This document shows positions 39,118-49,674 of a stretch of DNA of 64,000 nt, one piece after another. This DNA is from Labilibacter marinus (lineage in GTDB: Bacteria; Bacteroidota; Bacteroidia; Bacteroidales; Marinilabiliaceae). Below the pieces are notes generated by a model that worked only from the letters and a program-made list of their open reading frames with translations, was not told where the DNA came from and ran no database searches. Each line of letters begins with the position of its first letter. Position 1 is the first letter of the stretch. The stretch covers positions 90,839 through 154,838 of the forward strand of contig NZ_LXYE02000045.1 in the NCBI RefSeq assembly GCF_001659685.2, written 5' to 3'. Position numbers and translations under genes: made by a program.

Positions 39118-39135
39118 CAAAACACTACACACTGA
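39118..39135 (+). repeat. 18-bp word, copy 1, upstream of the sigma-54 activator
   Basis: CAAAACACTACACACTGA occurs here and again, identical, at 41100-41117. This copy lies in the region shared by the divergent tonB-like and activator genes. Confidence 0.75.
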
Positions 39136-39195
39136 ACTATAGACGATTACAACAACACCCACTACGATTACAAATAGATGTCAGCCTATATAAAA

Positions 39196-39211
39196 TCGCC
39201 CGATTGGGCGA
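39196..39211. promoter_or_regulatory. Palindrome upstream of the sigma-54 activator, operator candidate
   Basis: TCGCCC and GGGCGA flank GATT, a perfect 6-bp inverted repeat unusually GC-rich for this AT-rich intergenic stretch, 88 bp before the activator start. An autoregulatory or enhancer site is a guess. Confidence 0.45.
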
Positions 39212-39271
39212 AATAGCCCGCCCAACAGCCACTTTTCACAAAGCCTAAATCCTATTAATCCTAATTTTAAC

Positions 39272-39279
39272 TAGTTTTG
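39272..39279 (+). promoter_or_regulatory. -7 element of the activator promoter
   Basis: TAGTTTTG fits TAnnTTTG, 19 bp before the ATG. No good -33 element was seen at standard spacing. Confidence 0.45.
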
Positions 39280-39298
39280 CATCTCACTTTCATCATTT

Positions 39299-41014
39299 AT
39301 GAAAACACTAAATATCCACGACACCATTGAAGCTATTGTTTCTTTTATGGATAACCAGCTCCAAAAGGAAATTCAAAACCCTTGTGTGACAATTCTGTTA
39401 GATGAAGAAAAGAAGAAACTATATGAGAAAGCATATGGCGATAAAAACACCACGAAAGAAATAAGTGATTATCTACTAGAAGTAAACCTTCAAAATACGG
39501 CGAAGTCAGAAGGCATCGAGATTTCCTACTTTATAAAACCTATAGAAGGTACTAAACTCAGCTTTTTATTTGCCAGCAAGCAAGATGCTCATACAACTCA
39601 ATCGTACCTTACCTTAATTTATCTTAGCATCATAGAGTACCTAAAACAAACTGGAGCAATAAAAACCATTTTAAAAAACGAGGCCTATCTCACTGCAATG
39701 ATTGATGCGGTAAAAGCAGGAATGATAGCCATTAACCTTAGCGGAGATATTATATATGCCAACAAGTTTATTTGCAAAGAGCTTAAAACCGACAAAACAT
39801 TTTTCTTTAGTCAAAATATTCGAAGCCTAATTCCAAATTGGAATTCAATTTTTAAGATGGTTAGTGCAGGTAACATGGTTAAAAACGAGGAAACCTTCAT
39901 TAATACTTCCAGCATATCTTTAAAATTAAATATTGATGTAATTGCCATTAATGACAAGCACCAAAACAAATTAGGTTTTTGCATTATTTTTCGCTCCTTA
40001 GAAAAAATTACTTCCTCTAAAACTGGTGCTAGCGGAATGACTGCTCGATATTATTTTAAAGATATTATTGGCAAGAGTAAAGCCATGAAACAGGTGATTG
40101 AATATGCTCAAACCATATCCAATAGTCCATCTACCATTTTAATTGAGGGAGAAAGTGGAACTGGGAAAGAAGTATTTGCACAAAGTATACATAATGCAAG
40201 CAATCGAAAAAATAATGGGTTCGTGGCTATAAATTGTGCCGCTATTCCAGAAAACTTAATTGAAAGTGAACTATTTGGTTACGATGATGGTGCATTTACG
40301 GGTGCTAAAAAAGGTGGGCAACAGGGAAAGTTTGAATTAGCCAACAAAGGCACTCTGTTTTTAGATGAAATTGGAGATATGAAACCCGACATGCAGGTTA
40401 AGCTTTTGCGCGCCATACAAGAAAGTAGCGTAACCAGAGTGGGAGGAGAAAAACTAATTCCTGTAGATGTAAGAATAATTGCAGCTACCAATAAAAACTT
40501 AGCCGAGGAAGTTGAGAATGGAAATTTTAGGATGGATCTTTACTATCGTATTAGTGTAATTCCTTTGCATATTCCATCACTTAAAGAGCGCAAAAGTGAC
40601 CTTCCGTCGCTCATTCGATTTTTTCTGAATGAAAAGAGTATTAAGCTGCAAAAGGATATTCCACAGATGGGTTATTCTATGCTACAACAATTATTAGATT
40701 ACGATTGGCCAGGAAATGTGCGTGAATTACAAAACTTTATAGAACAACTAGTAAACTTTAATGGGAAAATATCTTTAGACAGTTTTCAAAAGTTAAAACA
40801 AGAAGAACAACTCATCACGCATATTCCTGTAATTCAAAACGATTTTAGCTATACTCCTTCAATATCCTTAAAAGATTTAGAAAGAAAACACATTATCAAT
40901 ACCTTGTCGCAACATAATGGCAACATGACTAAAACTGCTAAATCATTAGAAATTAGCAGAAACACGCTCTACCTAAAACTTAAAAAATACAACATCAATC
41001 ATAGACTGTCCTAA
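39299..41014 (+). CDS. PAS-containing sigma-54-dependent transcriptional activator
   Basis: 571 residues in three parts. Residues 1-125 are an unrecognised alpha/beta sensor; 126-240 look like a PAS domain (LTAMIDAVKAGMIAINLSGD, IIYANKFICKEL). The AAA+ domain has Walker A GESGTGKE (283-290), the sigma-54 contact loop GAFTGA (331-336) intact, Walker B LFLDEIGD (353-360) and the WPGNVRELQNFIEQ segment. A Fis-type HTH ends the protein (MTKTAKSLEISRNTLYLKLK). There is no receiver domain, so the signal is read directly. It sits just before the hydrogenase operon and shares an 18-bp upstream word with it, so it is the likely regulator. Confidence 0.93.
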   Translation: MKTLNIHDTIEAIVSFMDNQLQKEIQNPCVTILLDEEKKKLYEKAYGDKNTTKEISDYLLEVNLQNTAKSEGIEISYFIKPIEGTKLSFLFASKQDAHTTQSYLTLIYLSIIEYLKQTGAIKTILKNEAYLTAMIDAVKAGMIAINLSGDIIYANKFICKELKTDKTFFFSQNIRSLIPNWNSIFKMVSAGNMVKNEETFINTSSISLKLNIDVIAINDKHQNKLGFCIIFRSLEKITSSKTGASGMTARYYFKDIIGKSKAMKQVIEYAQTISNSPSTILIEGESGTGKEVFAQSIHNASNRKNNGFVAINCAAIPENLIESELFGYDDGAFTGAKKGGQQGKFELANKGTLFLDEIGDMKPDMQVKLLRAIQESSVTRVGGEKLIPVDVRIIAATNKNLAEEVENGNFRMDLYYRISVIPLHIPSLKERKSDLPSLIRFFLNEKSIKLQKDIPQMGYSMLQQLLDYDWPGNVRELQNFIEQLVNFNGKISLDSFQKLKQEEQLITHIPVIQNDFSYTPSISLKDLERKHIINTLSQHNGNMTKTAKSLEISRNTLYLKLKKYNINHRLS

Positions 41015-41075
41015 TCAAGGACGATGTATTTATTTAGGACATTTGCATTTCATATAATCGACCTATTTTAGGACA
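41007..41075. promoter_or_regulatory. Repeated TGTCCTAA / TTAGGACA half-sites upstream of the hydrogenase operon
   Basis: TGTCCTAA (41007-41014) overlaps the activator stop codon. Inverted copies TTAGGACA lie at 41034-41041 and 41068-41075, 34 bp apart. The first copy also forms GTCC-N7-GGAC. They lie 108-176 bp before the first gene, a distance suited to sigma-54 enhancer sites. Confidence 0.5.
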
Positions 41076-41099
41076 GTTAGGTTCACATCAATATTAATA

Positions 41100-41117
41100 C
41101 AAAACACTACACACTGA
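41100..41117 (+). repeat. 18-bp word, copy 2, upstream of the hydrogenase operon
   Basis: Identical to 39118-39135, located 66 bp before the first gene of the operon. A partial echo, CTGCACACTACC, follows directly. Confidence 0.75.
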
Positions 41118-41182
41118 TCTACTGCACACTACCCCAATTGGCATGTAATTAGATATACAACCTATATATAAACACGGTTGTT

Positions 41183-41437
41183 ATGGATAAAACTCAAGAA
41201 AAAGCAAAAATCAGAATTTGTTTAGGTAGCTCATGCTACACTAGAGGTAATGCCGAAAATCTTAAAATTATTCAAGCTTTTGTAGAAGATAAACAAATTA
41301 ATGCTTCTATCGATTTTAGAGGACACCTATGCAATGAGAACTGCAATAAAGGTCCTGTTATTAACATCAATGGGGTTTCTTACGAAGAAGTTCAAGCTTT
41401 TCAAATAGAAAAAATTCTTGAAGAAACACTTATTTAG
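41183..41437 (+). CDS. Thioredoxin-fold [2Fe-2S] ferredoxin
   Basis: An 84-residue protein with the NuoE/HndA-type ligand pattern: Cys13 and Cys18 (CLGSSC) and Cys50 and Cys54 (HLCNENC), the C-x4-C and C-x3-C spacing of thioredoxin-like [2Fe-2S] clusters. It ends with the strand PVININGVSYEEV. It probably passes electrons to or from the hydrogenase-like protein encoded two bases downstream. First gene of the operon; about 168 bp separate it from the activator gene. Confidence 0.9.
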   Translation: MDKTQEKAKIRICLGSSCYTRGNAENLKIIQAFVEDKQINASIDFRGHLCNENCNKGPVININGVSYEEVQAFQIEKILEETLI

Positions 41438-41439
41438 GC

Positions 41440-43173
41440 ATGAATACTAAACCCATTTACACCATAGAAAACGATTGTAAGGATTGTTATAAATGCATTA
41501 GAAATTGCCCATCTAAAGCCATTAAAATTACGGAGCAGAAGGCTTCTATTATTGATGAGCTATGCGTGTACTGTGGACATTGCGTTTCTATTTGTCCGGC
41601 TGAAGCCAAACAGGTAAGAGATGGAGTATCTAGAGTTAAACAACTTATCAATTCGGGTACAAAAACCGTGGTTTCACTGGCCCCTTCGTACCGAACCGAA
41701 TTTAAAAAGATTAGCGACAAAGAATTAATATCAGGGTTAACAACAATGGGTTTTAACTACATTTCGGAAACTGCCTTAGGTGCTCAAGTTGTAACTGAGC
41801 ATACTGAGCAGTTTCTGAAAGCCCGCAAAAAAGGCATCTACATTTCGTCTGCCTGCCCTGGAGTTGTTGAGCTCATTAAAAAATATTACCCGCAAAACAT
41901 TCCCAACATTACGCCATTTCTTTCTCCTATGCTAACGCATGCAAAAATGCTTAAGCAGGAATTAGGTGAGGATACTAAAGTAGTGTTCATTGGCCCTTGT
42001 ATTGCAAAAAAAGCTGAAGCCGACAACTGGCCAAAATTAATAGACACAGCCATATCTTTTAAAGAACTAAAGGATTGGATGCAAGAAGAAGATGTGTGGA
42101 GTAAGGAAAAACAAGAAAGTCAATTTTTTCCGCACAAAGCTAACAATGGCAAATTATACCCCATTGATGGTGGCATGATTAATACCTTTTCAGACCAATC
42201 GAATAGTAAACTCTTAAACCTTTCCTTTTCTGGCATTAACGAAGTAAAGCGGGTTTTAAATGATTTAAACGAAATTAATCACGATGGCCCCGTATTCTTA
42301 GAGCTGTTATTATGCGAAGGCGGATGCATTAATGGTCCTGGCTGTACTTCGGAAGCCAACCCTGTTCAAAAAAAGATTGATGTTCTATATAGCAATAAAA
42401 ATGAAGAATCAATCCAACAGAAAACACCCCTTATTAATATTGAATGTGATTATTTTGGATTAGAGCCAATTCAGGAAAGTAATTTTTCACCAGAAGAAAT
42501 CCGTGAAACCTTATACAGTATTGGTAAAGCAGATAGCACGCAAGAGTTAAACTGCGGAAGCTGTGGTTATAATACTTGTAGAGAATTTGCCAAAGCAACA
42601 CTGGCAGGAATGGCAGAAACCAACATGTGCGTATCACACCTAAAAAAGATAGCACATAATCAAGCTGCTGTTTTGTTGAAGAAAATTCCTTCAGGCGTTA
42701 TTATCATTAACCACGAATTTAAGGTGGTTGAGATGAATATGAGCTGTGCTAAAATGCTTGGAGATGATATTGAAAAAGCCTATTACGAAACAAACGAGTT
42801 AAAAGGGATAAGCATCAACGACCTTGGATACTTTAAGGAACATTTTAAAACAGCCATTCATACAGGAAAAGAATACAATCAGATAGCCATCAATCAAAAT
42901 GGAGCTAATTTTCAGCTATCCATATTTAATATTCAAAAACATAAGCTTATCACAGGCATTATCCAAAACTTTAAAAACAAAGAATTTAAAGCTGATATTA
43001 TTGAGAACAGAACAAGGGAGGTGATTAAAAAGAACATGGAAACGGTTCAGAAAATTGCAGCCTTATTAGGTGAAAATGCTTCGCATACAGACTCTTTATT
43101 GAACTCTATTTTGAACGACCATTCGGTAGATAAAGCTATTCCTGAAACCCATAATGCTACTGTGAATGAATAG
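41440..43173 (+). CDS. hydS: Sensory-type [FeFe]-hydrogenase with PAS domain
   Basis: N-terminal 2x[4Fe-4S] domain (Cys13, 16, 19, 23; Cys42, 45, 48, 52), then the H-cluster domain with ligands Cys139 (SSACPG), Cys187 (IGPCIAKK), Cys292 and Cys296 (CEGGCINGPG). The position before Cys139, normally the proton-transfer Cys in TSCCP, is Ala138; this is known for sensory-type enzymes. A further Fe-S domain follows (Cys372, 375, 380, 397; NCGSCGYNTC) and then a PAS domain (about 410-520). It ends in a helical tail. I infer a hydrogen or redox sensor that signals to the phosphatase whose gene overlaps its end by 8 bp. The symbol follows sensory hydrogenases of other phyla. Confidence 0.88.
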   Translation: MNTKPIYTIENDCKDCYKCIRNCPSKAIKITEQKASIIDELCVYCGHCVSICPAEAKQVRDGVSRVKQLINSGTKTVVSLAPSYRTEFKKISDKELISGLTTMGFNYISETALGAQVVTEHTEQFLKARKKGIYISSACPGVVELIKKYYPQNIPNITPFLSPMLTHAKMLKQELGEDTKVVFIGPCIAKKAEADNWPKLIDTAISFKELKDWMQEEDVWSKEKQESQFFPHKANNGKLYPIDGGMINTFSDQSNSKLLNLSFSGINEVKRVLNDLNEINHDGPVFLELLLCEGGCINGPGCTSEANPVQKKIDVLYSNKNEESIQQKTPLINIECDYFGLEPIQESNFSPEEIRETLYSIGKADSTQELNCGSCGYNTCREFAKATLAGMAETNMCVSHLKKIAHNQAAVLLKKIPSGVIIINHEFKVVEMNMSCAKMLGDDIEKAYYETNELKGISINDLGYFKEHFKTAIHTGKEYNQIAINQNGANFQLSIFNIQKHKLITGIIQNFKNKEFKADIIENRTREVIKKNMETVQKIAALLGENASHTDSLLNSILNDHSVDKAIPETHNATVNE

Positions 43174-44350
43174 CGCTTTTGTTATAGAGGCTGAAAACAT
43201 TAGTCAAGCTAAAGCAGGCGAGGCCATTTGCGGCGATGCTATCCTCTTTAAAAAGATTAAGGAAGAGAATAGGCTTGTTGCGGTAGTTGCCGACGGCTTA
43301 GGTAGTGGTGTGCAAGCCAATATTTCGGCTACCATGACCAGCACCATGGCATTACAATTTACCATAGCTGGCGAACCTGTAGAAAGAACGGCAGAATTCA
43401 TCACCAACACCTTACCCTTAGATTCAAAAAGAAAGGTTAGTTACTCCACCTTCTCTATTTTAGATATTAATTACAGAGGAGAAGTAAAAATAGTTGAATA
43501 CGACAATCCTCCCATATTAGTATTGAGAAACGGTGAATTTCTGGATTTAGAGAGACAAGAAAAAGTATTGGATAACCTTCAATCTAAGCGCAACAAAGTT
43601 TATCAATACAATTTTATTCTTGAAAAAGAAGACCGCATAATAATGGTGAGCGATGGCGTTACACAATGCGGAATGGGAAGCGACGATATGCATTTTGGAT
43701 GGCAATTAGCTGGTCTTAAAAGTTATATTCAAGAAACGGTTCTAGAACGACCTCATATATCTGCAAGGGAACTCGCGGATAATATCATCAATAAAACTTG
43801 TTCTATAGATAACGATAGACTGAAAGACGATGCTTCGTGTTGTGTTTTATATTACCGCAGGCCACGAAAATTATTGATAGTTACTGGGCCTCCATTCCAT
43901 AAAGAGAATGACTCGGTATTGGCGAGTGAGATATCTAATTTTAATGGAAAGAAAATTATCTGCGGAGGAACCACTTCTAAAATTGTAGCAAAAAACCTAA
44001 ATGCAAATGTAGAAATAGACTTAAGCAACTACAAACCAGGCCTACCTCCACAAGCCCAAATGCAAGGTGTCGACTTGGTAACTGAAGGTATCATAACCCT
44101 AGCAAAAGTATCGGAAGAACTTAATATTATTCATTCCATTACCGAAACTAAGGATTCACTATCTGGACAGATCATTAGAATGATGTTAGAAAGCGATGAA
44201 ATAAATTTTATTTCTGGTACACGAATTAATAACGCCCATCAGGATCCCAACCTTCCTGTTGAGCTAGAAATTAGACGCAATGTTATCAAACGCATTGCGC
44301 ATCATCTTGAAAATAAATTCTTAAAAAAAACCTCTACCAAATATTTGTAG
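43166..44350 (+). CDS. SpoIIE-type PP2C phosphatase with unrecognised C-terminal domain
   Basis: Residues 1-230 are a PPM/SpoIIE phosphatase: GEAICGDAILFKK, VAVVADGLGSGVQA with the metal-binding Asp43, IIMVSDGVTQCG, and the C-terminal metal Asp in LKDDASCCVLYY. Residues 235-394 form a second domain (LLIVTGPPFHKEND, KKIICGGTTSKIVAKNLNAN, LPPQAQMQGVDLVTEGIITL) that I cannot assign. Such phosphatases dephosphorylate anti-sigma antagonists or other Ser/Thr-phosphoproteins; no matching kinase or antagonist is in the operon. Its start overlaps the sensory hydrogenase gene by 8 bp, so the two are likely made together. Confidence 0.88.
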   Translation: MNSAFVIEAENISQAKAGEAICGDAILFKKIKEENRLVAVVADGLGSGVQANISATMTSTMALQFTIAGEPVERTAEFITNTLPLDSKRKVSYSTFSILDINYRGEVKIVEYDNPPILVLRNGEFLDLERQEKVLDNLQSKRNKVYQYNFILEKEDRIIMVSDGVTQCGMGSDDMHFGWQLAGLKSYIQETVLERPHISARELADNIINKTCSIDNDRLKDDASCCVLYYRRPRKLLIVTGPPFHKENDSVLASEISNFNGKKIICGGTTSKIVAKNLNANVEIDLSNYKPGLPPQAQMQGVDLVTEGIITLAKVSEELNIIHSITETKDSLSGQIIRMMLESDEINFISGTRINNAHQDPNLPVELEIRRNVIKRIAHHLENKFLKKTSTKYL

Positions 44351-44351
44351 C

Positions 44352-44612
44352 ATGAAAAAAGAAATTGAAGTAAAGGTTTGCTGTGGCACTAATTGCTACA
44401 TCATGGGAGGTTCGGAGTTACATTTAATAAAGGAGCATTTGACCGAGGAAATCGCTCAATTGATCTCTTTAAAAGGAGAAAACTGTAGTGGAAATTGTCA
44501 TGATTTTTCCAGGACACAAAAACCTCCTTTAGCATGGATTAATGGAGAAATGATAGAAAATGCTTCAATAGAAAAACTAAAGAAAGAAATTGTTGCAAGA
44601 AGCCACAAATAA
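44352..44612 (+). CDS. Second thioredoxin-fold [2Fe-2S] ferredoxin
   Basis: 86 residues with Cys10 and Cys15 (CCGTNC) and Cys45 and Cys49 (ENCSGNC), the same ligand spacing as the first small ferredoxin but little other similarity. Cys11 is an extra cysteine next to the first ligand. One base separates it from the phosphatase gene. It probably serves as electron carrier for the catalytic hydrogenase that follows 36 bp later. Confidence 0.88.
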   Translation: MKKEIEVKVCCGTNCYIMGGSELHLIKEHLTEEIAQLISLKGENCSGNCHDFSRTQKPPLAWINGEMIENASIEKLKKEIVARSHK

Positions 44613-44648
44613 AAAAATAATAACTGATATATAAACTTAGATTACCGA

Positions 44649-46094
44649 ATGACCTATTTTAACAATGCGATTCAAACCAAACGTGAATTATTAACCCGAT
44701 TAATTAAATTATTAAAGGAAGATCAATTATTCGAGAAGATAGATCGTATTCCTTTGGATATGCGCCCAAAATCTAAAACTCCTATCAGATGTTGTGTGCA
44801 TAAAGACCGTGCTGTCATCAAATACAAATCAATGGCCATTATGGGTTTTTGCACCAAAGATGAAGAGGACGAACTGACACCTTTAAGCGATTATGCTAAA
44901 GAGGCCGTTAATAAAAAAGGATTTTCTGCGGAACACCTGACTGTTATTGACGAAGCATGTAGCTCGTGCGTTCAGGTTAACTATACGGTAAGCAATCTTT
45001 GTCAAGGGTGTGCTGGGCGCGCTTGTCAGGTAAATTGCCCTAAGGATGCTATTCGTGTAGTCAACAGCAAGGCCATTATCGATAACCAGAAGTGTGTAAA
45101 CTGTGGTTTATGCCAAAAGGCCTGTCCATTTCATGCTATTGCATATTTACCAGTACCTTGCGAAGAGGCGTGCCCTGTAAAAGCCGTTAAAAAAAATGAA
45201 GATGGTATTGAAGTGATTGACATGGATAAATGTATTTACTGCGGTAAATGTATGACGGCCTGCCCTTTTGGAGCCATCATGGAAAAATCACAGGTACTTC
45301 AATTAACCAGTTCGCTAAAAAAGAAAGAAGAAACAGTAGCCATGGTTGCCCCTGCCATCCTTGGTCAGTTTAAAGCTAGCCCAGAACAAATATTAGGTGC
45401 ATTAAAACAACTTGGCTTTACACATATAATGGAAGTTGCTGAAGGAGCTGATATTACCGCAAAAAATGAAACTGAAGAATGGATTGAAAGTGTTCAGAAA
45501 AACGACCCTTTCATGACTTCCTCTTGCTGCCCAGCCCATACACTATTGAGCGAAAAACATATTAAAACATTACAACCTTTTGTTTCGCACACTAAGTCCC
45601 CGATGATTTATACGGCGGAACTAGCCAAAGAAAAGTTCCCTAATGCACAACGTGTATTTATAGGTCCTTGTTTGGCCAAAAGGCACGAAGCAGAGCAATC
45701 GGGCTTAATCGATTATGTATTGACCTTTGAGGAGTTGAACTCATTTTTTACAGCTTACGAAATTGATTTTGCTAGCACTGAAAACATGGCTTTAATGTCA
45801 AGTATTTCGTCTGATGCGAGAGGATTTGCATTAAGCGGAGGAGTAGCTGAAGCTATTAAAAACAGCGTTCCGAATGGGTATGCCTTTAAAGAGTTTTTAA
45901 TTGATGGCTTACACAAAAAGAACATCAAATTATTAAAAGCCTTTAGTGCAAAAGCACCTGATTACAACTTTATTGAGGTGATGGGATGTGAAGGAGGCTG
46001 TATGAATGGCCCAGGAAGTGTGACTTCGTTTAAACCAGGCCAAGCTTTACTTAAAAAAGCTATTAAAGCACAAGAAGAGCTGGCAAACGCTTAA
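44649..46094 (+). CDS. [FeFe]-hydrogenase, group-B-like
   Basis: 481 residues. The N-terminal 100 residues are unrecognised and include CCVH and GFCTKDEE. The Fe-S region (104-206) has several cysteine sets: CSSC, CQGCAGRACQVNCP, CVNCGLCQKACP, CEEACP and CIYCGKCMTACP. The H-cluster ligands are Cys294 (SSCCPAH), Cys341 (IGPCLAKR), Cys447 and Cys451 (CEGGCMNGPG), and the proton-transfer Cys293 is kept, so it should be catalytic. Domain layout fits the group B (monomeric, ferredoxin-linked) class common in Bacteroidota and Clostridia. It is last in the operon; the hydEFG maturation genes are not in the window. Confidence 0.9.
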   Translation: MTYFNNAIQTKRELLTRLIKLLKEDQLFEKIDRIPLDMRPKSKTPIRCCVHKDRAVIKYKSMAIMGFCTKDEEDELTPLSDYAKEAVNKKGFSAEHLTVIDEACSSCVQVNYTVSNLCQGCAGRACQVNCPKDAIRVVNSKAIIDNQKCVNCGLCQKACPFHAIAYLPVPCEEACPVKAVKKNEDGIEVIDMDKCIYCGKCMTACPFGAIMEKSQVLQLTSSLKKKEETVAMVAPAILGQFKASPEQILGALKQLGFTHIMEVAEGADITAKNETEEWIESVQKNDPFMTSSCCPAHTLLSEKHIKTLQPFVSHTKSPMIYTAELAKEKFPNAQRVFIGPCLAKRHEAEQSGLIDYVLTFEELNSFFTAYEIDFASTENMALMSSISSDARGFALSGGVAEAIKNSVPNGYAFKEFLIDGLHKKNIKLLKAFSAKAPDYNFIEVMGCEGGCMNGPGSVTSFKPGQALLKKAIKAQEELANA

Positions 46095-46162
46095 GTTTTC
46101 TTCTTTTAATTTGTATAATTTGGCCATTAATTTGGCGTTATTATAGTTTGTAAATCGTTAGG

Positions 46163-46200
46163 AAACAGCTTACAGAAACGTCTGTAAGCTGTTTTATTTT
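46163..46200. terminator. Bidirectional terminator after the hydrogenase operon
   Basis: AAACAGCTTACAGA and TCTGTAAGCTGTTT form a perfect 14-bp stem around AACG, followed by TTATTTT on the plus strand. The convergent regulator gene ends at its right edge. Confidence 0.92.
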
Positions 46201-47578
46201 ATATGATACTCTTATCTATCTCTATACCAAACTTCTTAATTTTACGCTTTAGTGCATCTCTGGATATACAGAGCAATTCTGCCGCTTGAGTTTGATTCAT
46301 TTCGCAGCGTTTTAGTGCTTCAATTATTAACTTCTGTTCATTCCTCTCTAAATCCAAAGTATCAAAAGAAAATGCTTCTTTTTTATGATCCCCTTTAATC
46401 GGAAAGTCATCAGGCAATAACACATTACCTTCCAACAAAATCAAAGCTCGCTCCACCATATTTCTTAATTCACGAACATTTCCTGGAAAGTAATATTTCT
46501 GAAGTTTCTTAATTAACTCTTCACTAATTATAGGTGCCTCAATATTCTTTTTACGCGCAAAAGAAGCCACAAAATGCGTTAATAAGGGTTTTATATCTTC
46601 CGGCCTTTCTCGCAATGGTGGAATATGAATTTCGATGGTATTTATACGATGATAAAGGTCAATTCTGAATTTATCTTCTTCAATTAACTTTTCAATATTT
46701 TTATTAGTAGCCGAAATAATTCGAACATCAACAGGCAACTCTTTGCTCCCTCCAATACGCTTTACCTTATTTTCTTCTATAGCCCGCAATAATTTTGCTT
46801 GCAACGAAAAAGGCATATCTGCAATTTCATCTAAAAACAAAGTACCATTATTGGCTAACTCAAAGTATCCTTTTTTATCTTCTCTGGCATCGGTAAACGA
46901 CCCTTTCATATGACCAAAAAACTCGCTTTCTAACAAAGTAGCAGGAATAGCAGAACTATTTACTGGAGCAAAAACCTGCTCATTACGGGGACTTCCATAA
47001 TGTATAATTCGAGATATGATTTCTTTTCCCGTTCCGTTCTCTCCCGTCACCAATACGTTTACATCTTTATCTTTAGCAGCCTTTAATGCTATTTTAATCA
47101 CATTTCTAATCGCGCCACTTTCTCCAATAAAGTCCTTTTCAATCATCCCTTCTAACTCGCGCGAAACCAAAGAACCTCTATTCTCAGCTTTCTCCAATTT
47201 CTGCTGAAGCTCAACAAACTTACCTGTTCGTTCTACGGCCACCTGAATATCCATCACCTGAAAAGGTTTTCGAATAAAGTCGGATGCACCTTTACGCATG
47301 GCCTCAATTACCATGTCCATATCACCGTAACCACTAATCATAATAACTTCGGTATTAGGAAAGTCTTCTTTTACTCTTTTTAGCACTTCCAAGCCATTCA
47401 TTCCAGGCAACATAACATCTAGTATCAAAATGCCAGGCTGTTCCTTTTCTAACAAAGCAAATCCTTCATTGGGCATATTGGCGGTATATACTTCAAAGTT
47501 TCTTTTATCGAGATGATATTTTAGTTTCTCTGTAATTCTAACCTCATCATCTAGAATTAATATTTTAAGATTACTCAT
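46199..47578 (-). CDS. NtrC-family response regulator
   Basis: The receiver domain (phosphoacceptor Asp54 in LILDVMLPGMNG, Lys104 in FIRKPF) is followed by an AAA+ domain with Walker A GENGTGKE (179-186) and WPGN-like FPGNVRELRNMVER, then a Fis-type HTH (NQTQAAELLCISRDALKRKI). The sigma-54 contact loop reads GSFTDA (226-231) in place of GAFTGA, which could weaken or alter the use of sigma-54. Its partner kinase is encoded 8 bp upstream. The targets are not shown. Confidence 0.93.
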   Translation of the reverse strand: MSNLKILILDDEVRITEKLKYHLDKRNFEVYTANMPNEGFALLEKEQPGILILDVMLPGMNGLEVLKRVKEDFPNTEVIMISGYGDMDMVIEAMRKGASDFIRKPFQVMDIQVAVERTGKFVELQQKLEKAENRGSLVSRELEGMIEKDFIGESGAIRNVIKIALKAAKDKDVNVLVTGENGTGKEIISRIIHYGSPRNEQVFAPVNSSAIPATLLESEFFGHMKGSFTDAREDKKGYFELANNGTLFLDEIADMPFSLQAKLLRAIEENKVKRIGGSKELPVDVRIISATNKNIEKLIEEDKFRIDLYHRINTIEIHIPPLRERPEDIKPLLTHFVASFARKKNIEAPIISEELIKKLQKYYFPGNVRELRNMVERALILLEGNVLLPDDFPIKGDHKKEAFSFDTLDLERNEQKLIIEALKRCEMNQTQAAELLCISRDALKRKIKKFGIEIDKSII

Positions 47579-47586
47579 GTGCTTAA

Positions 47587-49674
47587 TTATAATATTTTTG
47601 AAGTTTGGTTAACATCCTCATTCGTTTTTGGAAAAATTACTTTCATGATAGTACCTTCCATTACTCGGCTCTGAATCTCAATCCTTCCATTCATCTCTTT
47701 TACTAACCTATAAGAGATGGATAATCCTAAACCAGTACCTTGCCCCAATTGCTTGCTGGTAACAAAAGGCAAGAAAATATCAGTCTGTTTTTCGTGTGGA
47801 ATGCCCACTCCATTATCTCTCACTTTAATAAAAACCTCATTCTCCTCTAGACCCGTTTCAATTCTAATTTCTTTATTATATGCGCTATCATTTTCGGCTC
47901 GCTCATCTACAGCATCTCTGGCATTAGATAGCAAGTTATGGATAACCTGCTCTACTTTGTGAGGGTTCCCCAGAATTTCAGGAATATCATTTTGTAGGTC
48001 AAGAACAAGATTAACATTATGGTTTTGATACTGACGCGTGATAATAGAAGTAGCTGAATTCACACATTCCGAAACAGAGAATCTTTCGTAAACACTTTCT
48101 TTTTGTCCACTAGAAAACACCCTTATATGATCCACAATTTCGCGCACCCTTAAAATATCTTCAAACACCTCGTCTATCGATTGTTTTACAAAACCCAAGT
48201 TGGGCTCTTCCTCTATCAACTCAAACTTAATCCCTTCCGCCGAAAGCGAAATGTTTTGAATAGGCTGATTGATTTCATGCGCAATACCCGCTGCCAGCTC
48301 CCCTAACGACGACAAACTTGCCTGATGTACAATGATTTGCTGTTGCTCTTCTTGTTTTTGCAAAGCCTCTTTTACCTTAGCTGCCAAATTCTGATTCTCT
48401 TCTCTCTTTAGATAATAACGGTAATAAATAATAAAAACCAATATCAGTACTACCATTATAGTAAAACCAAAGGAAAGTCTCCATTTAGTTAAGTTTTCCT
48501 TCTCCAACCTTAAGCGATAATTATCGTTTTTAGCCTCCAGTAGCTCATTCTGACGATTCTTTTTCTCCAAGTCATTTACCGCTAGCGTACTTACAAACTG
48601 ACTTACATTTTGCTCACTCCTTAATCTATCAGAAACACTGGAATACAAAACTTGATATTCGTAGGCCTTTTTGTAATCTCCTAGCTCTTTATAAACGATA
48701 GATAACATTCGGTAATTATCTCTTATTACATCTCTATTACCAATTACTTTAGCAAGCAAAATACTATTTTCACTATGCGTGATGGCCTTCTTTCTATTAC
48801 CTAACTTGTTATATATTCTGGACAGATTTAAAAAAGAAACCGAAGCGCCGTAATGATCATCCTTATCAATTTGCAAAGCTAACGCCTGCTTGTATTTCGT
48901 TTCCGATTCCTCTAATTGATTTCTCCTGTAGTATACACCACCCATGCTATTTAAAGCCGAAGCAATATTTAAACTATCACCACGTTTCACATACTCACTA
49001 TGCAATAAAGTATAATATTCAAGGGCCTTTTCGTAATCCTCTGAGGTAAACCAAATCTCCCCAATACTTTCCCATAATGCTGTTTTTTCAAGCTCGTAAC
49101 GACTGGCTGTATCAGGAATATATTCCAAAGCCATAGTATAATTTTCTAGTGCAATTTGGTTGTCGCCCAAATTTTTGTGCACATTTCCCATATTCAAATA
49201 GGTTTCTATAATTTCTGGCACCTGGTTTTTACTTAAATAAATTAGTAAAGATCGCTTATAATTATCAAGCGATTTTTGAAATTTATCAAGTCGATAGAAC
49301 TTAGTTGCCAAAGCTGTCACTCCGCTTCGGTCTCCAATAGAATCATAAGTATCCAATGATTTTTGGTAATAAGAAAGTAAACTTTCGTAATCGCTCAAAA
49401 AGTAATACCCCATCCCTAGATTACCGTATGCTTTTGCCTTCCCTTCTTGATCGTTTAGCTTTTTGGCTAATTTTAAGGCTTGATTTGCATATTCAATGGC
49501 CTTTTCTGCATCGGATGAAATATAATACGAAGATAATTGATTGTATACTTCAACCTTTTCTGGTAGCGAAGAATTTTTTAGTTTACGATAAAGCTGGTTA
49601 ACAACAGATTCTTCTGCCTTTAAAGCGGTACATACAAAAAATAGCAAGACGCTTACCTGTACCAAATATTTCAT
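47587..49674 (-). CDS. TPR-containing sensor histidine kinase
   Basis: A signal peptide and about eight TPR repeats (residues 25-360) are followed by one membrane span (LSFGFTIMVVLILVFIIYYR, near 400), a coiled coil, and the kinase core. The H box is ELAAGIAHEINQPIQNISLS; the ATPase shows VIHNLLSNARDAVDE, VRDNGVGIPHEKQ and GTGLGLSISYRLVKE. Together with the NtrC-like regulator 8 bp downstream it forms a two-component pair. Sensing is expected through the periplasmic TPR region, probably by protein contact. One TPR helix near residue 110 is shortened. Confidence 0.92.
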   Translation of the reverse strand: MKYLVQVSVLLFFVCTALKAEESVVNQLYRKLKNSSLPEKVEVYNQLSSYYISSDAEKAIEYANQALKLAKKLNDQEGKAKAYGNLGMGYYFLSDYESLLSYYQKSLDTYDSIGDRSGVTALATKFYRLDKFQKSLDNYKRSLLIYLSKNQVPEIIETYLNMGNVHKNLGDNQIALENYTMALEYIPDTASRYELEKTALWESIGEIWFTSEDYEKALEYYTLLHSEYVKRGDSLNIASALNSMGGVYYRRNQLEESETKYKQALALQIDKDDHYGASVSFLNLSRIYNKLGNRKKAITHSENSILLAKVIGNRDVIRDNYRMLSIVYKELGDYKKAYEYQVLYSSVSDRLRSEQNVSQFVSTLAVNDLEKKNRQNELLEAKNDNYRLRLEKENLTKWRLSFGFTIMVVLILVFIIYYRYYLKREENQNLAAKVKEALQKQEEQQQIIVHQASLSSLGELAAGIAHEINQPIQNISLSAEGIKFELIEEEPNLGFVKQSIDEVFEDILRVREIVDHIRVFSSGQKESVYERFSVSECVNSATSIITRQYQNHNVNLVLDLQNDIPEILGNPHKVEQVIHNLLSNARDAVDERAENDSAYNKEIRIETGLEENEVFIKVRDNGVGIPHEKQTDIFLPFVTSKQLGQGTGLGLSISYRLVKEMNGRIEIQSRVMEGTIMKVIFPKTNEDVNQTSKIL

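What the first reader, a model, noticed from the sequence alone, without database searches (positions are those of the whole stretch)
39118..46200. Compact H2/redox-sensing module: sigma-54 PAS activator plus sensory hydrogenase, phosphatase and catalytic hydrogenase
Seen: an activator without receiver domain and then five genes with overlaps or gaps of 36 bp or less. Known: PAS-linked [FeFe]-hydrogenases are viewed as sensors in the hydrogenase classification, and PP2C phosphatases occur near them in other phyla. Inferred: the sensory enzyme reads H2 or electron pressure from the small ferredoxin, the phosphatase relays this, and the activator controls synthesis of the catalytic enzyme. Two hydrogenases, two small ferredoxins and an enhancer-binding protein in one unit make a possible complete sensing-response loop, with no kinase visible.
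Basis: partly seen in the sequence, partly recalled or inferred. Interest (0 to 1): 0.75.

Follow-up and report, generated by a model that had tools for sequence, protein, structure and literature searches.

The report
Separable switch and sensor controlling hydrogenase
In one family of Bacteroidota, genes for a hydrogen-making enzyme and for a hydrogen-sensor-like protein pair sit behind a dedicated activator gene that likely switches them on through three conserved DNA sites, and a relative that has no sensor pair keeps the activator, the sites and the enzyme, so the two controls probably work separately.

Summary
Observation confirmed: a sigma-54 activator gene (39299-41014), a 168-bp gap, then five genes (41183-46094) with gaps of 36 bp or less. 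The five match the known hfs operon kind: small ferredoxin, PAS-linked [FeFe]-hydrogenase (HydS), SpoIIE-type phosphatase, second small ferredoxin, group B [FeFe]-hydrogenase. New here: the gap holds three TGTCCTA-N3-TAGGACA sites and a -24 element (its -12 box is imperfect). In 30 activator-linked regions of six families the site triple exceeds the maximum of 600 shuffles in 29, and its distance to the promoter moves in steps of about 10 bp. The link from activator to operon is well supported by sequence. The relay sensor-phosphatase-activator is not: genome G337 (same genus) has activator, three sites and hydrogenase directly joined, and searches found no HydS and no such phosphatase in it. 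In five other families the cassette heads operons that start with Fe-alcohol dehydrogenase, Nfn-like or Rex-like genes and run into HydS. Best reading: a one-component activator of fermentative electron sinks, plus a separable HydS-phosphatase branch with an unknown target. New variant of a known kind; no bench test exists.

The parts
39299..41014 (+). Sigma-54 enhancer-binding activator, 571 aa: N-terminal domain (1-125, poorly conserved, GAF-like in some relatives), PAS-like region (about 128-235), AAA+ with GAFTGA, Fis-type HTH; no receiver
41007..41023 (+). Predicted upstream activator site 1, TGTCCTAATCAAGGACG (12 of 14 consensus positions); overlaps the last codons of the activator gene
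41025..41041 (+). Predicted upstream activator site 2, TGTATTTATTTAGGACA (11 of 14), 18 bp from site 1
41059..41075 (+). Predicted upstream activator site 3, CGACCTATTTTAGGACA (12 of 14), 34 bp from site 2
41139..41154 (+). Predicted sigma-54 promoter TGGCATGTAATTAGAT, 80 bp from site 3; -24 box good, -12 box GA instead of GC
   Evidence: sigma-54 gene present in the genome
41183..41437 (+). FdN: small thioredoxin-like [2Fe-2S] ferredoxin, 84 aa
   Evidence: PF01257; not found in 3 of 20 relatives
41440..43173 (+). HydS: PAS-linked (group C type) [FeFe]-hydrogenase, 577 aa; H-cluster Cys 139, 187, 292, 296; Ala138 at the CpI C299 position; FeS Cys 372, 375, 380, 397; conserved C-terminal helix
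43166..44350 (+). SpoIIE/RsbX-type PP2C phosphatase with conserved Asp 24, 43, 163, 221, 222 (metal-binding role recalled for PP2C), plus a conserved C-terminal domain (about 232-394) without an assigned fold
44352..44612 (+). FdC: second small thioredoxin-like ferredoxin, 86 aa (PF01257 23.7 bits, just under the 24.8 cut-off)
   Evidence: not found in 8 of 20 relatives
44649..46094 (+). Group B [FeFe]-hydrogenase, 481 aa, predicted ferredoxin-dependent H2 producer
   Evidence: TIGR04105 518.4 bits against cut-off 450
46162..46195 (.). Terminator-like hairpin (15 pairs) between the operon and the convergent response-regulator gene
   Evidence: 10 terminator-like sites in the scanned region against 5.8 expected

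Best explanation
The locus is an hfs-type hydrogenase operon headed by a one-component sigma-54 activator that likely switches it on by binding three conserved upstream sites, while the sensory hydrogenase and phosphatase inside the operon form a separable branch predicted to report H2 or electron pressure to a target that is probably not the activator. Shown from sequence: gene order, domains, the three-site-plus-promoter geometry in six families, a genome with activator, sites and group B hydrogenase in which no HydS and no such phosphatase was found, and sigma-54 and HydF genes in the own genome. Inferred: (1) the activator senses a fermentation or redox signal through its N-terminal/PAS region; (2) it binds the three sites and remodels sigma-54 polymerase at 41139; (3) the group B enzyme then discharges ferredoxin as H2; (4) HydS reads H2 or reduced ferredoxin at its H-cluster and passes the state through its FeS/PAS/C-terminal helix to the phosphatase; (5) the phosphatase acts on an unidentified Ser/Thr-phosphorylated protein as a feedback layer. 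In five other families the same cassette heads Fe-alcohol dehydrogenase, Nfn-like or Rex-like operons that run into HydS, so the signal is probably fermentative redox load.
For: Activator directly upstream in 19 of 20 family stretches; the 20th is cut by a contig end. Co-occurrence: of 71 family genomes, 22 have a close HydS (51% identity or more); 21 of these match the activator at 1e-140 and the 22nd, G336, has a partial one at a contig end; 2 have the activator without a close HydS; 47 have neither at these thresholds. Site triple above the maximum of 600 pooled shuffles (25 of 42) in 29 of 30 regions, including 9 of the 10 not used to derive the motif; site 1-2 spacing 18 bp in 28 of 30; site 3 to -24 box 71-72, 80-82 or 90-92 bp in 29 of 30. 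In 20 relatives scanned genome-wide for the full palindrome with up to 2 mismatches, 12 of 22 hits lie in this one gap. G337 and G029 keep activator, sites and B1 without the genes between; no HydS or such phosphatase was found in G337. Precedent: hfsB deletion raises hydrogenase activity and adhE expression (PMC5707799, passages); a sensor-bearing cluster of R. albus falls 111-fold in co-culture (PMC6776011, passages); N-terminal domains of Clostridiales sigma-54 activators include Fe_hyd_lg_C (PMC6615313, section 5); group B enzymes reoxidise ferredoxin (PMC12578642, passages).
Against: The -12 box is weak in the window's genus (GA or GT for GC); an exact GC at the expected place is present in 8 of the 30 promoters listed, and each element was the best-scoring one in a 45-bp range, so its presence in all 30 is partly by choice. 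A generic sigma-54 score alone does not single out the window. The motif was derived from the 20 family regions, so only 10 regions are independent tests; one of them, L043, only equals the shuffle maximum and has a 75-bp spacing. Relatives are not statistically independent. The palindrome is not enriched genome-wide (controls as high or higher). In L044, L064 and L070 another gene lies between activator and sites. No binding, transcript or H2 data exist. The HydS-less case rests on one genome for whole-genome absence (G337); G029 still has a second HydS-phosphatase pair. The activator could have been rewired to a new input in G337.
Confidence: 0.66

Rival explanations
1. One reading: HydS senses H2, drives the phosphatase, and the phosphatase gates the activator, which controls the operon (feedback without a kinase).
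For: Co-occurrence and order of activator, HydS and phosphatase in the family; the cassette also heads operons running into HydS in five other families; Fe_hyd_lg_C among the N-terminal domains of Clostridiales activators (PMC6615313, section 5).
Against: G337 keeps activator, sites and B1, and no HydS or such phosphatase was found in it. The activator has no receiver domain. In 22 of 30 loci outside the family no activator was seen near HydS, some cut by contig ends.
Confidence: 0.17
2. HydS is not a sensor but a low-activity catalytic subunit, and the phosphatase gene is only co-inherited.
For: H-cluster and FeS cysteines are invariant in 22 aligned HydS, so it may turn over H2; TmHydS does have some activity (PMC10055695, passages).
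Against: PAS-like region and a strongly conserved C-terminal helix; Ala138 in place of the proton-relay Cys; neither HydS nor the phosphatase found in G337 and G338; regulatory phenotype of hfsB deletion (PMC5707799, passages).
Confidence: 0.08
3. The convergent NtrC-type response regulator and TPR histidine kinase (46199-49674) control the operon instead of the one-component activator.
For: They lie next to the operon in the window and in many relatives.
Against: They are absent beside the operon in the fetched stretches L105, L110 and L121 and L160 and L161, all five of which keep activator, B1 and the site triple. The sites track the one-component activator into five other families.
Confidence: 0.05

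Closest known systems
hfsABCD operon of Thermoanaerobacterium (Firmicutes); hydS/hydA2 cluster of Ruminococcus albus
   Same: PAS-linked hydrogenase (HfsB/HydS), serine-phosphatase homologue (HfsC, PMC11837493 passages), group B hydrogenase (HfsD, PMC8924675 passages)
   Different: No sigma-54 activator with three upstream sites is described for it in the passages read; here the activator stands before the operon in 19 of 20 family stretches
HoxBC-HoxJ-HoxA H2-sensing system of Ralstonia eutropha
   Same: Works alike in outline: an H2 sensor and an activator govern hydrogenase genes (HoxJ/HoxA in PMC5707799 passages; HoxBC as sensor and the NtrC type of HoxA recalled)
   Different: [NiFe] sensor and a histidine kinase there (recalled); [FeFe] sensor, phosphatase, no kinase gene in the operon and a receiver-less activator here; not a family member
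One-component sigma-54 activators of Clostridiales (AdhR, PrdR and others)
   Same: PAS domain, Fis-type HTH, TGT-N10-12-ACA sites, multiple sites upstream of a -24/-12 promoter; AdhR with adhA (PMC6615313, passages, section 5)
   Different: Different target (group B hydrogenase operon); fixed 18 / 32-35 bp triple-site geometry; NCBIfam PrdR matched at 393.5 bits against a cut-off of 795, so not PrdR
RsbU/RsbX/SpoIIE phosphatases
   Same: Sequence match, predicted fold and conserved Asp residues
   Different: Extra conserved C-terminal domain; no STAS or anti-sigma kinase gene in the operon, although an RsbW-like HATPase lies in the second HydS cluster

Membership tests
hfs-type operon | PAS-linked HydS-type hydrogenase followed by serine phosphatase | tested here: met
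   (PAS match below the Pfam cut-off in the window)
hfs-type operon | Group B catalytic hydrogenase in the same operon | tested here: met
   TIGR04105 518.4 bits, cut-off 450
hfs-type operon | HfsA homologue | not tested
   HfsA was not compared with FdN or FdC
Group C sensory [FeFe]-hydrogenase | Four H-cluster cysteines and the FeS domain | tested here: met
   C139, C187, C292, C296 and the FeS Cys invariant in 22 sequences
Group C sensory [FeFe]-hydrogenase | PAS domain | tested here: inconclusive
   window protein matches PF00989 at 0.0058, below its cut-off; 15 of 22 aligned members match PAS_8 at 0.01
Group C sensory [FeFe]-hydrogenase | H2-responsive signalling output | not testable with these tools
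   needs experiment
One-component sigma-54 activator | AAA+ with GAFTGA, HTH, N-terminal regulatory region, no receiver | tested here: met
   (G337 has GAYTGA and L121 GAFSGA)
One-component sigma-54 activator | Upstream sites plus -24/-12 promoter at the target | tested here: met
   three sites in 29 of 30 regions; -12 box imperfect in the window
PP2C (SpoIIE/RsbU) phosphatase | Conserved Asp set and PP2C fold | tested here: met
HoxBC-HoxJ-HoxA | [NiFe] regulatory hydrogenase, histidine kinase, receiver-bearing activator (recalled) | tested here: not met
   [FeFe] proteins, no kinase in the operon, no receiver

The most novel reading that the evidence does not exclude
A kinase-free hydrogen-sensing circuit: HydS passes its H-cluster state through its conserved C-terminal helix to the PP2C phosphatase, and this pair and a one-component sigma-54 activator act as two independent sensors converging on one group B hydrogenase, one controlling its transcription and one its post-translational state or a shared phosphoprotein.
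Probability: 0.3. Interest if true: 0.78.

Novelty: new variant of a known kind. Interest (0 to 1): 0.56.

Why it matters
Group B hydrogenases are reported to drive most gut H2 production (PMC12578642, abstract start, passages), and the sensory role of PAS-linked [FeFe]-hydrogenases is still called putative for lack of physiological evidence (PMC8924675, passages). This locus gives a transcription switch with predicted binding sites and a natural comparison (same genus, with and without HydS-phosphatase) that makes the role of the sensory hydrogenase directly testable. It also ties H2 formation, alcohol dehydrogenase and Nfn/Rex-like genes to one predicted activator group in six families.

Tried and rejected
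A genome-contig scan with a single HydS query found one relative only, Labilibacter sediminis; whole-genome searches replaced it. A generic sigma-54 consensus score was not discriminating: the window's best was 11.5, other loci reached 12.0, so the claim rests on conservation and geometry. The two exact paired-site patterns each mark one place in the own genome, but their backward-read controls also hit (2 and 4 hits), so uniqueness alone proves nothing. The palindrome with up to 3 mismatches in the own genome gives 22 hits against 43 for the control, and with up to 2 mismatches in 20 relatives 22 against 50, so no wider regulon is claimed. The 50 rows listed for the phosphatase model were phosphatases or their complexes, so its C-terminal domain stays unassigned; the 50 rows listed for the activator model were sigma-54 activators or their AAA+ domains. 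Sigma-70-like promoters were at chance level (24 against 25.3). Literature searches listed no title or abstract start on a sigma-54 activator of hfs-type operons in Bacteroidota; this covers the held open-access library only, and the R. albus paper tried by id (PMC4248817) is not held. A paper on sigma-54 regulons mentions [NiFe] hydrogenases of Proteobacteria (PMC12316311, passages).
Full report
Observation. The activator (39299-41014) is separated from the unit by 168 bp. A terminator-like hairpin follows at 46162-46195. The genome (6.03 Mb, 81 contigs) holds seven Fe_hyd_lg_C proteins, a sigma-54 gene and HydF. The only named relative found by the genome-contig scan is Labilibacter sediminis (Marinilabiliaceae).

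What the five genes are. HydS has a Fer4 dicluster domain, the hydrogenase domain, an FeS domain and a weakly scoring PAS region. In 22 aligned sequences the H-cluster cysteines 139, 187, 292 and 296 and the FeS cysteines 372, 375, 380 and 397 are invariant (their cluster roles are by alignment and recall). Position 138 is Ala, where CpI has the proton-relay Cys299; Ala is the commonest residue there in sensory enzymes, about 43% (PMC10055695, passages). The phosphatase is of the SpoIIE/RsbX kind. The last gene passes the NCBIfam cut-off for group B [FeFe]-hydrogenase (518.4 against 450 bits). The set resembles hfsB-hfsC-hfsD of Thermoanaerobacterium, where HfsC is called homologous to serine phosphatases (PMC11837493, passages) and HfsD group B (PMC8924675, passages). 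So the core is known in kind.

Gene order elsewhere. In the order-level sample 122 of 295 genomes have a HydS-like match at 1e-60. Of 31 loci then examined (L012 plus 30 from other families, chosen mostly from the best matches), 17 keep all five genes FdN-HydS-PP2C-FdC-B1, 3 keep HydS-PP2C-B1 without FdC, and the other 11 differ or are cut by contig ends. An activator of this group was seen near HydS in L012 and in 8 of the 30 (L043, L044, L054, L057, L060, L061, L064, L070). In the family, 43 of 71 genomes have some HydS-like match at 1e-50; 22 of them, the own genome included, have a close one (51% or more). Twenty stretches were fetched: the activator is immediately upstream of the operon in 19 (L117 and L118 with short reading frames), and in the 20th (L116) the contig ends there. 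The activator search at 1e-140 finds it in 23 of 71: 21 of the 22 close-HydS genomes (the 22nd, G336, has a partial one), plus G337 and G029. FdN was not found in 3 and FdC in 8 of the 20 stretches.

The regulatory region. Aligning the 20 activator-to-operon gaps (window included) shows a TGGCA-type -24 element and three copies of TGTCCTA-N3-TAGGACA. With at least 10 of 14 matching positions, 51 such sites occur in the 20 gaps against a mean of 1.6 and a maximum of 5 in 200 shuffles. A fixed-geometry test on 30 regions (these 20, G337, G029 and 8 from five other families) gives a triple score above the maximum of 600 pooled shuffles (20 per region) in 29 of 30; L043 equals it. Site 1 to site 2 is 18 bp in 28 of 30, site 2 to site 3 is 32-35 bp in 29 of 30, and site 3 to the -24 box is 71-72, 80-82 or 90-92 bp in 29 of 30, steps of about 10 bp, close to a helical turn. 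The clustering at a 10.5-bp period has R 0.85 over 30 regions and 0.66 over the nine distinct distances; relatives are not independent. The motif came from the 20 family gaps, so the independent test is the other 10, of which 9 exceed all shuffles. In the window the -12 box reads GA instead of GC; GC is exact in 8 of 30. The palindrome is not enriched genome-wide, but in 20 relatives 12 of 22 hits with up to 2 mismatches lie in this one gap. TGT-N10-12-ACA sites and multiple sites per promoter are typical of Clostridiales one-component activators (PMC6615313, passages).

The decisive comparison. In G337 (same genus) and G029 (same family) the activator is followed directly by the group B hydrogenase, with all three sites and a -24 element between them, and without HydS, phosphatase or ferredoxins. 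G337 shows three Fe_hyd_lg_C proteins, in open frames of 591, 459 and 485 aa, none of which matches HydS at 1e-50, and no match to the phosphatase at 1e-10. G029 still has a second HydS-phosphatase pair elsewhere. The activators of both keep AAA+, HTH and a PAS match. HydS (1e-50) and phosphatase (1e-10) numbers agree in 6 of 8 genomes; in G335 and G313 a further hydrogenase of HydS length lies beside the extra phosphatase. This supports their being one pair.

Other families. The cassette lies before a 388-aa gene that is Fe-alcohol dehydrogenase by Pfam in L043 and L060 and by length and place in L057 and L061; before an Nfn-like pair in L044 (Pfam) and by length in L070; and before a Rex-like gene in L054 and, by length and place, L064. 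In L044, L064 and L070 another gene lies between activator and cassette. In all eight the same strand runs on into HydS; the phosphatase is seen in six, the contig ending inside HydS in L064 and L070. 'Rex-like' rests on a CoA_binding match in 4 of 5 proteins tested, one of them just under its cut-off, and on recall. In Firmicutes, hfsB deletion raises hydrogenase activity and adhE expression (PMC5707799, passages), and the R. albus cluster with the sensory hydrogenase and an alcohol/aldehyde dehydrogenase falls 111-fold in co-culture (PMC6776011, passages). This fits a common theme of choosing between H2 and ethanol as electron sinks.

Mechanism and limits. The step from activator to operon is strongly supported by sequence but untested at the bench. 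What the activator senses, that HydS responds to H2, that the phosphatase is active, and what it acts on are inferences.

Noticed in passing
39122-39135 and 41104-41117: Exact 14-bp direct repeat ACACTACACACTGA upstream of the activator and between site 3 and the -24 box; none in 100 shuffles of the window.
   Followed up: partly
L010:1401-17217 (own genome contig C4): Second cluster with two HydABC-like sets, a second HydS-phosphatase pair, DRTGG proteins, an RsbW-like HATPase and a PHP-like protein (HydABC and PHP labels recalled from sequence); a possible home of a kinase for these phosphatases.
   Followed up: partly
L011:4853-6739 (own genome contig C1): Hydrogenase domain fused to a methyl-accepting chemotaxis signalling domain, 628 aa.
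   Followed up: no
43859-44347 (phosphatase residues about 232-394): Strongly conserved C-terminal domain of the phosphatase with no Pfam match at 1e-3 and no assigned PDB match in the rows listed.
   Followed up: partly
46199-49674: Convergent NtrC-type response regulator and TPR histidine kinase, next to the operon in many but not all family relatives.
   Followed up: partly
L044:2091-4307 and L070:4467-6683: A 738-aa protein, antiporter-like by my reading of its sequence in L044 (label recalled), between the activator and its predicted target operon in one other family.
   Followed up: no
39299-39673 (activator residues 1-125): N-terminal domain hardly conserved between close relatives although the PAS, AAA+ and HTH parts are; 7 of 18 aligned activators match GAF.
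   Followed up: no
G338 (same genus): A hydrogenase of B1 score and length (516-aa frame, C3:5559735) with no HydS, phosphatase or activator above the thresholds used: the enzyme may also stand alone.
   Followed up: no
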